32,739 nucleotides of DNA from Solirubrobacteraceae bacterium (lineage in GTDB: Bacteria; Actinomycetota; Thermoleophilia; Solirubrobacterales; Solirubrobacteraceae). The DNA is taken from NCBI GenBank assembly GCA_017882445.1, contig JADGPK010000024.1, forward strand, positions 1 to 32,739, read 5' to 3'. Below the pieces are notes generated by a model. It did no database searches. It saw only the letters and a list, made by a program, of their open reading frames with translations, and was not told the DNA's origin. Below, in pieces: positions 26,976-32,739 of the stretch. Both the position numbers and the translations under genes were made by a program. Numbering within the stretch: position 1 is the first letter of the stretch; each line of letters opens with the position of its first letter.

Positions 26976-28046
26976 ATGGCACGCGACGACCGCACAGAGA
27001 AGGCGACACCCAAACACCGCCGGCGCGCGCGCGAGAAGGGGCAGGTGGCGCGCAGCACAGATCTCGGCGGCGCGTTCGTGCTGATCGCCAGCCTGCTGGC
27101 GATCAGCGTGATGGGTCCGCGAATCGTCGGATCCGGCGCCGCGAGCTTCCGGGAGATCCTTGCCAAGATCGCGCATCCGGGCCGCGCCACGACCGCCGCG
27201 GGGCTCAATGGACTCATGCACTCGGGGCTCTCCACGATCGTCCTCGCCGTCGCCCCGATCGCCGCCGCGTGCATGGCGGCGGCCCTCATCGCCGGGGTAG
27301 CCCAGGTCGGCTTCAGGCCCTCCGCGCACGCGCTCAAACCCGACTTCCGTCGCATCAACCCCGTGTCCGGCCTGCGCAACCTGCTCGGCCCCAACCTCGT
27401 CTTCGAAGTCCTGAAGGTGACCGCCAAGGTCGGCGTCGTCGGCCTCGTGGCCGGACTCGGGATCTTCGGGGGCATGGCCGACCTGGCGTCCAAGGTCGGG
27501 ATGCAGCCCATCGCGCTCGGCGGGCTGCTCGGGCAGCGGGCGCTGGGGATCGCCCAGCGCGCGGCCTTCGCCTACCTGGGCATCGGGCTGCTCGACTACG
27601 GATGGAAGCGGTTCCGCCACGAGCGGCAACTGAAGATGACCAAGCAGCAGGTCAAGGACGAGACGCGCCAGTACGGGATCTCCGCCGAGGTCAAAGCCGC
27701 GCTCAGGCGGCGCCAGATGCAGGTCGCTCGCGCCCGCATGATGGCCGCCGTCCCCGATGCCGACGTGGTCGTGACCAACCCGACCCACTTCGCCGTCGCG
27801 TTGCGCTACGACGGCTCCCGCACGGCCCCCGAGGTCATCGCCAAGGGCAAGGATCTGATCGCGGCGCAGATCAGGCGGGTGGCCGAGGAGAACGACGTCC
27901 CGGTCGTCGCCGATCCTCCGCTCGCGCGCGCCCTGCACCAGTCGGTCGAGATCGGCCAGGTGATCCCCGAGGAGCTCTATGCGGCCGTCGCGCGGGTGCT
28001 CGCGTTCGTCTACCGCCTCGCCGGGCGTAGGAGGCTCGCGGCGTGA
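26976..28046 (+). CDS. flhB: Flagellar export switch protein FlhB
   Basis: FlhB selects export substrates and is cleaved by itself when the hook is complete. The 356-residue protein has a basic start (DRTEKATPKHRRRAREKGQV, the family signature) and four membrane helices. The cytoplasmic domain has the autocleavage site NPTH at residues 268-271 within VVTNPTHFAVALRYDG, then EENDVPVVADPPLARALHQS. All key residues appear intact. FliK in the same cluster is its expected partner for substrate switching. The end overlaps the flhA GTG (GTGA). Confidence 0.97.
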   Translation: MARDDRTEKATPKHRRRAREKGQVARSTDLGGAFVLIASLLAISVMGPRIVGSGAASFREILAKIAHPGRATTAAGLNGLMHSGLSTIVLAVAPIAAACMAAALIAGVAQVGFRPSAHALKPDFRRINPVSGLRNLLGPNLVFEVLKVTAKVGVVGLVAGLGIFGGMADLASKVGMQPIALGGLLGQRALGIAQRAAFAYLGIGLLDYGWKRFRHERQLKMTKQQVKDETRQYGISAEVKAALRRRQMQVARARMMAAVPDADVVVTNPTHFAVALRYDGSRTAPEVIAKGKDLIAAQIRRVAEENDVPVVADPPLARALHQSVEIGQVIPEELYAAVARVLAFVYRLAGRRRLAA

Positions 28047-29734
28047 GCGCCTCCATGCGCAGGCTGATGCCCCACGCCGACATGCTCGCGGCGGTCGCGG
28101 TCGTGATGGTCGTGACGATGCTGGTCGTGCCGCTGCCGGCGGCGCTGCTGAGCCTGATGATCACCGTCAACATCGCCACGGCGCTCACGGTGGTCGCGGC
28201 CACGATGTATCTCGGCAGGGCGCTGGACTTCGCGTCGTTCCCGAGCCTCCTGCTGCTGACCACGATGTTCCGCCTGGCGATCAACGTGTCGGTGACGCGC
28301 CTGATCCTCACCACCGGCGACGCCGGCAGCGTCGTGAAGTCCTTCGGCGAGTTCGTCGTCGGTGGCAACGTGGTCGTCGGCCTGGTCATCTTCCTGATCC
28401 TCGTCGTGATCCAGTTCGTGGTCGTCACCAACGGCGCCGGGCGCGTCGCCGAGGTCGGCGCCCGCTTCACCCTGGACGCGATGCCCGGCAAGCAGATGGC
28501 GATCGACGCCGACCTGAACGCCGGTCTGATCACCGACGATCAGGCGCGCACACGTCGTTCTGAGGTCGCCCGTGAGGCCGACTTCTACGGCGCGATGGAT
28601 GGAGCGTCGAAGTTCGTCAAGGGCGACGCCATGGCCGCGCTGATAATCACCGCGATCAACCTGATCGGCGGGATCATCGTCGGCATGCTCCAGCACCACC
28701 TCGGCTTCGGCGAAGCGACCCAGCAGTACTCGCTGCTGACCGTCGGTGACGGGCTCGCCGCCCAGATCCCGGCGCTGCTGATCTCGGTGGCCACCGGCAT
28801 CATCGTCACCCGCGCCGCGTCCGACCGGGATCTCGGCAGCGACATCGCCCACCAGATCCTCGGCCAGCGCAAGGCGCCGCTCGTCGCCGCCGGTGCGATC
28901 GGCATGTTCGCCCTGATCCCCGGCCTTCCCAAGCTGCCCTTCCTGTTCATCGCCGCGATCTTCGGCGCGGTCGGCTGGGCCGTGCGGGACGGGCTGCCGA
29001 GCGTCAAGGCCGCCGCCGCCGACGCCGCCGCGAGCACCGCCGCCGCCCTGCCGGCCCCCGGCGAGGAGTCCCTCGGCGAGGTCGGCGTCGACGCGCTCGA
29101 GCTGGCGATCGGCTTCGGGCTGGTGCCGCTCGTGGACGGGGGCTCGGGCGGGTCGGGCAGTTCCCTGTTGCGGCGGGTGAGCATGATCCGCCGCCAGATA
29201 GCAGGGGACCTCGGCCTGGTGATCCCGCCCGTGCGCATCCACGACGAGCTCGGCATGGAATCGCACGAGTACGTCCTGAAGGTTCGTGGCTCGGAGGTCA
29301 CGCGCGGGCGGATCATGCCCGGGCACCTGCTCGCGATGGATCCCGGTGACGCCAGCGGCACCCTGCAGGGGATCCCCACGCGCGAGCCCGCCTTCGGCCT
29401 GGCGGCCGTGTGGGTACACGAATCCGCAAGGGCGGAGGCCGAGTCGCTCGGCTACACGGTCGTCGACGCCGAGTCGGTGATCGTCACCCACCTCACCGAG
29501 ATGATCCGCTCGCACGCTGCCGAGCTGCCTTTGCCTCCCAGTCCTTCTGGGCATCCTCGTGCCATTGGGAGATCGGAACGCGCGGGCAGTGTTCGTTGTA
29601 GCCGCATGAACAGGACCACCATCGATCGACGCGATCGTGACCGGCCTCGTACTTGTCCTCTACGGCTAGTAGTTTGCCGCACTTCGGGCACTTGCCGGAG
29701 AGATGTGCCGCAAGAATTACCTTCGCTTGCTTGA
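28043..29734 (+). CDS. flhA: Flagellar export protein FlhA, C-terminally truncated and fused to foreign sequence
   Basis: FlhA is the nonameric export gate that docks chaperone-substrate complexes. The frame begins at a GTG overlapping flhB. Hydrophobic segments are clear to about residue 320 (TTMFRLAINVSVTRLILTTG; ARFTLDAMPGKQMAIDADLN of the FHIPEP region). An Ala-rich linker leads into the cytoplasmic domain. It reads normally to VIVTHLTEMIRSHAAEL (codon 495, base 29527). From there the remaining about 68 codons are unrelated, Arg-rich text that comes from the opposite-strand neighbour. FlhA is normally about 690 residues, so roughly 190 C-terminal residues, including most of the chaperone-docking region, are missing. 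The gene is probably non-functional as written, unless the junction is an assembly error. Confidence 0.9.
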   Translation: MSASMRRLMPHADMLAAVAVVMVVTMLVVPLPAALLSLMITVNIATALTVVAATMYLGRALDFASFPSLLLLTTMFRLAINVSVTRLILTTGDAGSVVKSFGEFVVGGNVVVGLVIFLILVVIQFVVVTNGAGRVAEVGARFTLDAMPGKQMAIDADLNAGLITDDQARTRRSEVAREADFYGAMDGASKFVKGDAMAALIITAINLIGGIIVGMLQHHLGFGEATQQYSLLTVGDGLAAQIPALLISVATGIIVTRAASDRDLGSDIAHQILGQRKAPLVAAGAIGMFALIPGLPKLPFLFIAAIFGAVGWAVRDGLPSVKAAAADAAASTAAALPAPGEESLGEVGVDALELAIGFGLVPLVDGGSGGSGSSLLRRVSMIRRQIAGDLGLVIPPVRIHDELGMESHEYVLKVRGSEVTRGRIMPGHLLAMDPGDASGTLQGIPTREPAFGLAAVWVHESARAEAESLGYTVVDAESVIVTHLTEMIRSHAAELPLPPSPSGHPRAIGRSERAGSVRCSRMNRTTIDRRDRDRPRTCPLRLVVCRTSGTCRRDVPQELPSLA

Positions 29735-30374
29735 GCGCTGCGAGCACGTCGTCGGGGTCAATCTTTGCGGGAATGTCGGCCGCGTTCACCGTTGGTCGTT
29801 GAGCGGCTCCGCGCACGATGTTGTTAGGAAGCGGAAGCTCCCTCTCAAGCTCGGCTAGCGTCCCTGCGCAGCGAATGCCTTTGGGTTTGAGCGTATAGAT
29901 GTTCCCGACCTGCCTCTCGACCATGTCGCTAGCTTCGAGGTGCTTGAGGGATTGCTCGCACTCGTCAAGAGAGAGTCCCGTGGCGAGTAGCTCGGGTGCT
30001 CTCGGAGATATGCGCAGCCGCATGCCGTTCGCGAAGTAGATGTCGCGCAGGGTGTGAATGACTGCCCGCGCACGACCATTCGGGTGGCACGCTTCGGACG
30101 CGCCGAGTGCCTCCGCACGTTCTCGTCCGGCTGGCTTGAGTTCCACGTGTCCAAACGTGAACGGAACCGTGGCATCGTTGCGTCCCGCCTCGACATCGCC
30201 TTCGGTGTCGAGCGCGTCCACGGCGTCGTTCAGGGGCTCTGGTTGGATGTCTAGCTCCTTTTGAAGTTCGACCGCGCTGGGGCAGTAGCGCCCCCGCATC
30301 GCGTCGCCTTCGCCGTAGCCGTGGCGATAGAGCGCAAACAAGACGATCTTCTTCGTGACCGCGACGCCGTTCAT
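29493..30374 (-). CDS. Unknown protein with winged-helix-like regions and a C-terminal zinc ribbon (3' end in flhA)
   Basis: I do not recognise the family. The 293-residue frame has two segments that look like winged-helix folds: YCPSAVELQKELDIQPEPLN onward to VELKPAGRERAEAL, and LSLDECEQSLKHLEASDMVE leading to IYTLKPKGIRC. A C-terminal zinc ribbon has KCPKCGKLLAVEDKYEAGHD then WWSCSCGYNEHCP. This suggests nucleic-acid binding. I chose the ATG at 30374, with GGAGGG upstream, because 57 extra residues in the open frame above it come from palindrome and transposon-end DNA. The last 11 or so residues are antisense flhA, so its own 3' end may be lost at the same junction. Confidence 0.6.
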   Translation of the reverse strand: MNGVAVTKKIVLFALYRHGYGEGDAMRGRYCPSAVELQKELDIQPEPLNDAVDALDTEGDVEAGRNDATVPFTFGHVELKPAGRERAEALGASEACHPNGRARAVIHTLRDIYFANGMRLRISPRAPELLATGLSLDECEQSLKHLEASDMVERQVGNIYTLKPKGIRCAGTLAELERELPLPNNIVRGAAQRPTVNAADIPAKIDPDDVLAALKQAKVILAAHLSGKCPKCGKLLAVEDKYEAGHDRVDRWWSCSCGYNEHCPRVPISQWHEDAQKDWEAKAARQRASGSSR

Positions 30375-30425
30375 TTGGGGAGACCGCCCTCCAGTCGTGC
30401 GAGGGTACACGCTGTTGGCGGCCTT

Positions 30426-30467
30426 GTGTTCGCGCGCACAACCTCTTGCCCTTGCGCCGACAAACAC
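30426..30467. repeat. 42-base palindrome, left copy
   Basis: Two 17-base arms (left arm GTGTTCGCGCGCACAAC; right arm inverse of GTGTTTGTCGGCGCAAG) separated by an 8-base centre CTCTTGCC. It matches the copy at 30728 at 32 of 42 positions. The arm-8-arm layout resembles tyrosine-recombinase sites, but it could also be an operator. Confidence 0.7.
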
Positions 30468-30499
30468 GGAGGCGGGTAGGGGACCGCAGGCCGTGTTTG

Positions 30500-30727
30500 T
30501 GCGCATTCCGCCGCGCGTGACCACCCATTCCGCGAGCGTGACCACTTATCCACAGGCGGCGGCCTTGCGGTCGCGCCTCTTCCCACTCGTCGGCCTCTTT
30601 GCCTTCATTTGCAGCTCTTTCGCGCGATCACGCCGATGGACACGGTTCGCGAAACAGGTGGTCACGGTGGCGAAATCGATGGACACGGCACGGCGAAACG
30701 GGTGGTCACGGAAGCGCGAGATTCGCA
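30500..30727. mobile_element. IS21-like miniature inverted-repeat element (228 bp, non-autonomous)
   Basis: The ends are TG...CA, as in the IS21 family. The left end has two and the right end four tandem units of 21-22 bases, built on CGTGACCACCCRTTYCG and CGTGTCCATCGATTTCG variants, in inverted orientation. The outer 19-base ends align (TGCGCATTCCG... and TGCGAATCTCG...). The flanks are GTGTTTG at 30493-30499 and again at 30728-30734, a 7-base target duplication. No transposase is encoded. Removing it rejoins the right palindrome intact. Family assignment is from end structure only. Confidence 0.7.
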
Positions 30728-30769
30728 GTGTTTGTAGCCACAACCTTCTGCAGTTGTGCCGACAAACAC
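30728..30769. repeat. 42-base palindrome, right copy
   Basis: Arms GTGTTTGTAGCCACAAC and its near-perfect inverse (15 of 17 paired) flank an 8-base centre CTTCTGCA. Before the miniature element inserted at its left edge, it would have stood 25 bases from the left copy. The next 220 bases (30770-30990) hold no gene I can support. Confidence 0.75.
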
Positions 30770-30990
30770 AACGCGCGAAAGCCCGGCATTCTGGCGGTTC
30801 TCGCCGACGGCAGAAGGGGACGAGGGAACGTTGCTCCGCCGTCCCTCCGTTGACAAGTCCGCTCGCGCCGACGGTCGGCGCCGCCGCGGCCACCTGGCGC
30901 ATCAACACGGCCTCCAGCTCCAGCCGCACCGGGTGCGTTGCCGTGACGCGTCGAGGCGATCCGCGTAGAGATGCCGTCGCGGTCGGTGCT

Positions 30991-31260
30991 ATGTGCCCTG
31001 CCATGTGTTGCTCTACTCCGACCGGCCTCTACCCGTTCCAAGGCGACTTCTGCCGATGCTGTGGTGAACGGCTGGATCGTCGTGCAGGAACGCCCTACTG
31101 CAACCGAACGCAAATCGGGCCGTGTCCCCACTGCAAACGTGAGAGCTGCGGTCCGCACTTCTGCCCCGGCTCGGGAAAGACGCCGTTGCGTTTCCACTGC
31201 GAGCATTGCGGGCAGGCTTGTGCGAACGGCACGTGCCCGCAGGGGCACGGCTGCACGTAG
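30991..31260 (+). CDS. Small cysteine-rich, zinc-ribbon-like protein
   Basis: The 89-residue frame has many cysteines in CxxC-like pairs: CRCCGERLD, PCPHCKRESCGPHFCPGSG, and FHCEHCGQACANGTCPQGHG. This suggests two or three zinc-binding knuckles. The frame is open far upstream, but that part runs through palindrome and transposon-end DNA and is not credible, so the start is placed at the ATG just before the cysteine region (a second ATG follows 4 codons later). No strong ribosome site is seen. The opposite strand is also Cys-rich by chance mirror coding, which lowers confidence. Function unknown. Confidence 0.45.
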   Translation: MCPAMCCSTPTGLYPFQGDFCRCCGERLDRRAGTPYCNRTQIGPCPHCKRESCGPHFCPGSGKTPLRFHCEHCGQACANGTCPQGHGCT

Positions 31261-31660
31261 AGGCAAAATTCGCGTCCCCGCGTCATACCGAACTCGGCCG
31301 CGCTCGCCGTCATGGGCTTCGACCAGACCACGTCGTGGAGCTACTCTCGGGTGAAGCGGACCGTCTTCTCGCTCGGGCCAGCGAGGCTACCCTCGGCGGA
31401 TGTCGTCCCCTCGCGAACGAGCCGCGAAGAAGGACGAGAGAGCGAAACGTGGCGAACTCGGACTGAAGCGATAGCTTGCGCATCTTGCCCGCTCCCGACA
31501 CGTGCCGCCCCAAGGCACGTCCCGTCCTGGTCTCCCACCATGCGGCTCGACGTGCGGCGCGTCATCCAGGTGAAGATCAGGGACGAGATCATCGAGGGCG
31601 CACGCGCGTCAAGGTCGTCAAGAACGAGTAATTGGCAACGAATCGTCTACGTTCTTCGGC
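31261..31660. other. 400-base stretch without a supportable gene
   Basis: Several short frames exist on both strands, but none shows a recognisable motif, a ribosome site or consistent codon use. A fragment reading VRRVIQVKIRDEIIEGA just before 31620 looks like a remnant, followed in another frame by VKVVKNE and a stop. This hints at a decayed, frameshifted gene. No hairpin of note was seen. Confidence 0.4.
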
Positions 31661-32452
31661 TCAGCTCGGCGGCACGGAGACAGGAGGCTCCGGCATTTCT
31701 GGAACTGAGTCGGCGTCGCTCGTCTTTGGTTTGAATGCACCGAAGTACTTGATCGATTGCTCGACGGCTTCGAGGTGCTCATCCAGACGATCCTCGTCCA
31801 GCATGTGAGCCGCGAAGTGCCGCTTCTCATCAGGTGCGATGACCGCGATGTTGATGGGGAGGGCGACGCCGCCGACCGATGCGTCGATGCTCCGCTTCAT
31901 GACCCACACGGCGGCGAACTCCGCCTGCTCGAGTGTGGGTTGCTTCCCATCCCAGAACGCGTCGCGCACCAGCGCGAGGTAGGCGTCGGCGAGACGCTGG
32001 CCAGAGCCCATCGAAACGAACCACGCCTTCGGTGACTTGAGCTCGGGCTGGAAGTCCTTCACGGCGAACTCGCAAAGCGAAGGCCCATTCTTGTCTCCGT
32101 ACGCGACAAGAGCGCCAAATTGGCTCGTCTGCACGTTCGTGCTCACGAAGTCCTGGAGGCCAAGTGCGCAGAGCCTGCGGTACAGATCGGTTTGCGTCGC
32201 CGAATCGCTGAATGGTGACACGCGAGTGTCCTTGAGCTTGGCGGTTCCCGCGTACGCCGCCCGCACAGTGTCGTGCCATCGCTGTCCGAGGCCGACCTGT
32301 CCGGTGCCGGCGACGATGACCCTCTCGCTAATGATGTCGATCTTGCACGCCTTGTGCACGATGGTGGTTTGCTGTCCGTCGCCGAAGCTCATCGCTTGGT
32401 CGGCAGCGATCACAACGCCGTCCGTGCACAAGATTCCGACGAGGAGGGTCAT
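31661..32452 (-). CDS. Proteasome-like Ntn hydrolase, stand-alone
   Basis: The 263-residue protein begins [19 protein letters not shown], which is the N-terminal strand pattern of a 20S proteasome beta subunit without a propeptide. Removing Met exposes Thr1. Asp falls at mature position 17 and lysines at 33 and 36 (K36-I fits the alignment better), matching the Thr1/Asp17/Lys33 site. Further on are [18 protein letters not shown] (GSG at 148-150) and SIDASVGG, in the places of the conserved Ser129 and Asp166 regions. The last 35 residues are Pro/Ser-rich. It differs from HslV and from actinobacterial PrcB, which has a propeptide and sits next to prcA. No ATPase or Pup gene is nearby. The ATG overlaps the stop of the small upstream frame (ATGA). 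Confidence 0.75.
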
Positions 32453-32739
32453 GGCTCGCGGAAGACGGAGCGCTCGCGCATCTCGGGGAACTCACGGTAC
32501 ACCGACGACACGAGCTGCTGGAACGTCATCGACCGCACGTAGTTCGATACCTTGGCGAGGTAGTCGCGCATCGGTTCGCTGACTTCGGAGAGCACCCTCG
32601 TACCGGCGGTGCGCCCCGCCTCCTCGTACAGGTCGCGACGTGCCGTGTGGGTCGCGAGCGTCGACCCGTTGCCGGGCAGGGCCAGGCCGAGGGCCTCGAC
32701 GAGACAGTTCATCGAGTTGGCGGTGAACATGCCCGAGCA
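32449..32739 (-). CDS. ilvD: IlvD internal fragment fused in frame to a short unknown segment
   Basis: The frame enters from the right edge with [20 protein letters not shown] followed by [20 protein letters not shown]. This is unmistakable dihydroxy-acid dehydratase of the E. coli type, including the cluster-ligand cysteine of [10 protein letters not shown]. Similarity ends after YEEAGR (about 32611). The remaining 54 residues ([20 protein letters not shown] and [17 protein letters not shown]) are not IlvD, and about two thirds of the enzyme is missing downstream. The tail may be the end of a small gene that normally precedes the proteasome-like gene, since its stop overlaps that ATG; a 40-residue version could start at 32571. 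The 5' end lies outside the window. Confidence 0.75.

What the first reader, a model, noticed from the sequence alone, without database searches (positions are those of the whole stretch)
28043..32739. flhA and ilvD are both cut, with a 3.1 kb unrelated block between them
FlhA reads normally to HAAEL (base 29527), then turns into unrelated sequence. At about 32610 the unrelated sequence turns, in frame, into the middle of IlvD. The genes inside the block are affected too: the left one reads its stop codon from antisense flhA, and the right one has lost its 5' end into ilvD. Genes broken on both sides of both joints do not fit a clean insertion. Either an illegitimate rearrangement has disabled the export gate, or the contig is chimeric. 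If real, the strain should be non-motile or use a second flhA.
Basis: partly seen in the sequence, partly recalled or inferred. Interest (0 to 1): 0.75.

Follow-up and report, generated by a model that had tools for sequence, protein, structure and literature searches.

The report
Chimeric contig end within flhA
The broken flagellar gene is most likely an assembly error: the rest of the gene sits at the very end of another contig of the same draft genome, and the DNA fused to the break looks foreign.

Summary
In detail: FlhA homology stops at 29527/29528, and an IlvD scrap begins at about 32603-32607 and runs off the contig. The window is all of contig C168 in a 234-contig draft genome. The lost part of flhA starts one base from the end of contig C84 and reads to a natural stop. 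In same-genus genome G002 both parts lie on one contig, 37 bases apart; 7 of 7 relatives aligned have exactly 13 residues between them. So C168 and C84 are neighbours with a small gap, and C168 carries a 3.2 kb wrong tail. No long match to the block appeared in 23 other genomes of the genus (12 candidates scored per genome). It is a composition outlier against large contigs. The IlvD type is unmatched in 6 of 6 other same-genus genomes sampled, and no more of it was found in this genome. Best reading: a chimeric contig end; neither lost motility nor a second flhA is implied. A real insertion with loss of about 38 bases is not excluded, because no reads could be mapped. Interest is low.

The parts
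28043..29527 (+). flhA, 5' part (495 codons), genuine to this genome
   Evidence: PF00771 positions 1-472, E about 1e-198; 90% identical to FlhA of same-genus G002; collinear with G002 up to 29528
29527..29528 (.). left joint: end of true chromosome sequence (base 29528 is still shared with relatives)
   Evidence: alignments of five same-genus genomes stop at 29527-29528; the remaining flhA begins one base from the end of contig C84
29529..30374 (-). truncated block gene (282 codons in the block, zinc-ribbon-like near its C-terminal end), stop taken from antisense flhA at 29493
   Evidence: only family matches below cut-off, among them Cas12f1-like_TNB at E 0.017 and RepL at 0.2; no close relative in 299 class genomes, phages, plasmids or viral contigs
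30426..30769 (.). stretch with repeated GCGAAACxGGTGGTCACG motifs and two 42-nt copies ending CCGACAAACAC
   Evidence: direct repeats D1, D2 and inverted repeats I1-I3; reminiscent of insertion-sequence ends (recalled, not tested)
31540..31628 (+). scrap resembling recA (about 30 codons, with a one-base shift of frame)
   Evidence: 93-97% identity over 30-31 nt to recA-like genes in L141, L143, L144, and 92% over 25 nt to the genome's own recA (L145, PF00154), with weaker flanking similarity at matching spacing; no Pfam or NCBIfam hit
31661..32452 (-). small gene, 263 aa, open from start to stop, proteasome/HslV-like Ntn hydrolase
   Evidence: PF00227 E 4.4e-8, above cut-off; no close relative found
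32449..32604 (-). 3' part of an upstream block gene whose stop overlaps the Ntn hydrolase start; its 5' end is lost at the right joint
32603..32607 (.). right joint
   Evidence: IlvD homology fades here against 11 relatives, by eye, and ends at 32605
32605..32739 (-). ilvD scrap (middle of a PRK12448-type dihydroxy-acid dehydratase), cut by the contig end

Best explanation
This is an assembly chimera at the end of contig C168 of a draft genome. The true chromosome continues from 29527/29528 across about 37 unassembled bases into the end of contig C84, which carries the last 180 codons of flhA and the genes after it. The 3.2 kb after the joint is foreign DNA joined by the assembler or by a chimeric library molecule: about 3.08 kb of a lower-GC stretch, plus about 135 bases of an ilvD, probably from other members of the sampled community. 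Shown here: the two parts of flhA on two contig ends, their adjacency in G002, and no long match to the block in relatives. Inferred: that the false join arose in assembly or library preparation, and that the source was another organism.
For: The window is all of contig C168, so its right edge is a contig end. FlhA profile positions 486-656 lie at C84:88970-89479, and C84 is 89480 long. The two parts match the same G002 protein at 90% and 96%. On G002 contig C3 the window ends at L032:5937 and C84 begins at L032:5899; the C84 match runs 5.35 kb from its end, flhA tail included, at 77%. Seven of seven relatives aligned (four of the genus, three of the order) have exactly 13 residues between the parts. 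Five of 23 other genus genomes match the flhA side over long range; none of the 23 gave a block match longer than 39 bases. The block was found once in the genome. Its tetranucleotide distance exceeds 24 of 24 segments from large contigs, and its GC is 63% against a segment mean of 69%. The IlvD scrap is 91-93% identical to the best relatives of its own type in other genera of the family but 33% to the genome's own IlvD on C54. None of 6 other same-genus genomes matched it. No other piece of that type was found in the genome. Genes cut on both sides of both joints fit random fragment ends.
Against: No reads are available, so no split coverage was seen. C84 shows no foreign tail of its own. Two joints within 3.2 kb need two false joins or one composite molecule. 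GUNC's authors call misassemblies 'relatively rare' in MAGs (passage read, PMC8201837). The source organism of the block was not found. The DNA searches scored only part of their candidates (40 of 85, 12 per genome, 2 per genome). The composition average was built from the same large contigs it was tested on; 1 of 44 segments of the bin (contig C40) is as far as the block, and C200 and C10 come close. Third-position GC of the Ntn hydrolase (0.79) is no lower than that of the C84 flhA tail (0.80).
Confidence: 0.9

Rival explanations
1. A real insertion of foreign DNA (mobile element or illegitimate recombination) in flhA, with loss of about 38 bases of target. C168 shows one end, and the far end with C84's continuation was not assembled.
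For: The block has small genes without close relatives, repeat motifs and a recA-like scrap, as in a decayed mobile region. Weak matches below cut-off touch mobile-element families: Cas12f1-like_TNB (E 0.017) and RepL (E 0.2) in the left gene. Lower GC fits acquired DNA.
Against: C84 ends inside flhA without any block or element sequence. No integrase, transposase or replication gene passed a cut-off in the block ORFs scanned. Both block ends cut genes. The right end runs into the middle of an ilvD type not otherwise found in the genome. No long match to the block in 23 other genus genomes.
Confidence: 0.06
2. A population mixture: most cells have intact flhA and a minority carry a rearranged copy, and the assembler followed the minority path at a low-coverage spot.
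For: Would explain why nearly all of the gene is recoverable across two contigs while a junction sequence exists.
Against: No second version of flhA was found in the genome, and the ilvD scrap is not of the genome's own type.
Confidence: 0.04

Closest known systems
Chimeric contigs and misassembled contig ends in metagenome assemblies (GUNC, PMC8201837; Jorg, PMC8172020)
   Same: Fragments from different sources joined into one contig. The Jorg paper notes issues at the ends of SPAdes contigs (passages seen).
   Different: The assembler and the reads of this genome are unknown here, so the cause of the join is inferred.
flhB-flhA-flhF flagellar export operon
   Same: The order continues from the window into C84, where the next gene starts just after flhA and similarity to G002 carries on. 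The flhB and flhF labels and the operon order are recalled, not searched.
   Different: Over the stretch compared, the contig break, the gap and the tail are what sets it apart from G002.
Dihydroxy-acid dehydratase IlvD, PRK12448 type
   Same: 43 residues at up to 93% and 45 at 91% to family relatives; PRK12448 is the best NCBIfam match.
   Different: Only a scrap; the genome's full-length copy is of another kind, on C54.

Membership tests
Chimeric contig (assembly artefact) | the true continuation of the broken gene exists elsewhere at a contig edge | tested here: met
   C84:88970-89479 of 89480
Chimeric contig (assembly artefact) | relatives have the two parts contiguous without the block | tested here: met
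   G002; seven of seven FlhA proteins aligned are whole
Chimeric contig (assembly artefact) | composition and affinity of the tail differ from the host | tested here: met
   outlier against 24 of 24 large-contig segments, though 1 of 44 segments of the bin is as far; IlvD type unmatched in 6 of 6 other same-genus genomes
Chimeric contig (assembly artefact) | reads break or depth changes at the joint | not testable with these tools
   no reads held
Mobile element insertion | element-borne recombinase or transposase | tested here: inconclusive
   nothing above cut-off in the block ORFs scanned; a zinc-ribbon stretch gives Cas12f1-like_TNB at E 0.017, below cut-off; the 3.1 kb may be only part of an element
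Mobile element insertion | the other element end joined to the other half of the target gene | tested here: not met
   C84 ends within flhA with no foreign bases
Loss of flhA by truncation | missing part of the gene absent from the genome | tested here: not met
   present on C84 except 13 codons in the contig gap

The most novel reading that the evidence does not exclude
The block is a true insertion, in this lineage, of an undescribed element carrying a proteasome-like Ntn hydrolase coupled to a short upstream gene. It would have disrupted flhA, with a small deletion at the target.
Probability: 0.06. Interest if true: 0.35.

Novelty: not a real feature. Interest (0 to 1): 0.06.

Why it matters
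It removes a false claim of a disabled flagellar export gate, and shows how a contig-end chimera in a draft genome can pass as a double gene fusion. Claims of flhA loss, ilvD duplication or horizontal transfer should not be drawn from this contig end.

Tried and rejected
Source of the block: sought by protein in 299 class genomes (right gene, one search left gene), phages and plasmids, viral contigs and genome contigs (right gene only), and by DNA in 396 phylum genomes with 2 candidates scored per genome. Other than the window itself, only weak or short matches were found: 28-42% identity for proteins, and DNA pieces under 90 bases. No source was identified.

Naming the host: a genome-contig scan with window FlhA kept the best 80 of 590 relatives; the best of these is Patulibacter minatonensis at 67%. 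The window's own genus was not named, and near records may be left out of that tool.

A closed-circle reading (both cut block genes are on the minus strand, so they could be two halves of one gene on a circular molecule) was considered by arithmetic on coordinates only. The uncertain right joint allows an in-frame fit, which chance would often give, and nothing supports it.

RNA families: none at gathering score in 28000-32739. PADLOC: none for three block proteins. A survey of all contig ends for other false tails was not done.

Full report
What was claimed. The finding says that flhA is cut at 29527, that about 3.1 kb of unrelated sequence follows, and that this turns into the middle of ilvD at about 32610. 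The sequence bears this out. FlhA matches PF00771 positions 1-472 over 28109-29527. DNA similarity to five same-genus genomes stops at 29527-29528. The last 135 bases, on the minus strand, are IlvD of the PRK12448 type, and homology fades at about 32603-32607. The left block gene reads its stop from antisense flhA, and the right one has an open frame into ilvD.

Where the rest of flhA is. The window is contig C168 in full, one of 234 contigs in a 3.27 Mb draft genome scored 94.9% complete and 3.5% contaminated. A search of that genome for PF00771 gave two matches only: the window's, and positions 486-656 at C84:88970-89479 on the minus strand. C84 is 89480 bases long, so the second part begins one base from the end of that contig. 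It reads 180 codons to a stop codon.

The two parts are one gene. Against FlhA of same-genus G002, the window part is 90% and the C84 part 96% identical. In an alignment with seven intact relatives (four of the genus, three of the order), all seven have exactly 13 residues between the end of the window part and the start of the C84 part. In DNA, G002 contig C3 aligns with the window down to L032:5937 and with C84 from L032:5899 on, 37 bases apart; the C84 match runs 5.35 kb from the contig end. C168 and C84 are therefore most simply neighbours on the chromosome, with a gap of about 37 bases.

The tail looks foreign. In 24 genus genomes (own included), 5 of the 23 others match the flhA side over long range. 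None of the 23 has a long match to the block; four show pieces of 39 bases or less within it (12 candidates scored per genome). The block was found once in the genome (40 of 85 candidates scored). In 396 phylum genomes, matches other than its own are under 90 bases (2 candidates scored per genome). Its GC is 63%, against a mean of 69% for 44 three-kb segments of the genome. Its tetranucleotide distance exceeds all 24 segments from five large-contig pieces, and 43 of 44 segments overall. Contig C40 is as far, C200 and C10 come close, and the average was built from the same large contigs. Two fetched all-N contigs were dropped. The IlvD scrap is 33% identical to the genome's own IlvD on C54 but up to 93% identical to other genera of the family. 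In a sample of 299 class genomes, none of the 6 other same-genus genomes matched it at E 0.001. A full-length relative of that type found, besides the scrap, only the C54 gene at 37-45%.

Reading. A gene whose two parts lie on two contig ends that abut in a close relative, with an odd tail on one of them, is the mark of a broken assembly with a false extension. That both joints cut genes on both sides fits random fragment ends. The inferred cause is a low-coverage or difficult spot in flhA followed by a wrong join. Published accounts describe chimeric contigs as a known error in metagenome assemblies, and issues at contig ends (passages seen in PMC8201837 and PMC8172020); the first also calls misassembly relatively rare. 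That this genome is metagenome-derived is inferred from its fragmentation; the tools do not say so.

What remains open. No reads could be mapped, so a true insertion with loss of about 38 bases, or a minority variant, is not strictly excluded. Against insertion: C84 carries no foreign bases at its end, and no recombinase or transposase passed a cut-off in the block ORFs scanned. For it: the left gene has weak matches below cut-off to Cas12f1-like_TNB and RepL. The source of the block was not found.

Verdict. There is no evidence here that motility is lost or that a second flhA is needed.

Noticed in passing
window 31661-32452 (-): A 263-aa proteasome/HslV-like Ntn hydrolase with no close relative in the collections searched; its start overlaps the stop of a short upstream gene.
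   Followed up: partly
window 31540-31628 (+): A recA-like scrap of about 30 codons with a one-base frame shift, just past the end of the Ntn hydrolase gene; up to 97% identical over 31 nt to recA-like genes of same-phylum genomes and 92% over 25 nt to the genome's own recA.
   Followed up: partly
window 30426-30769: Repeated GCGAAACxGGTGGTCACG and CCGACAAACAC motifs in direct and inverted copies, like insertion-sequence end relics (likeness recalled, not tested).
   Followed up: no
genus of G000: flhA is patchy in the genus: 4 of 18 other same-genus genomes have PF00771, and 5 of 23 match the locus by DNA. Four of the 18 that are over 90% complete (G003, G008, G012, G016) gave no PF00771 match.
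   Followed up: no
G000 contigs C10, C40, C200 (L036, L039, L049): Small contigs of the same bin with GC 0.64-0.66 and outlying tetranucleotide composition; possibly binning contaminants or mobile DNA.
   Followed up: no
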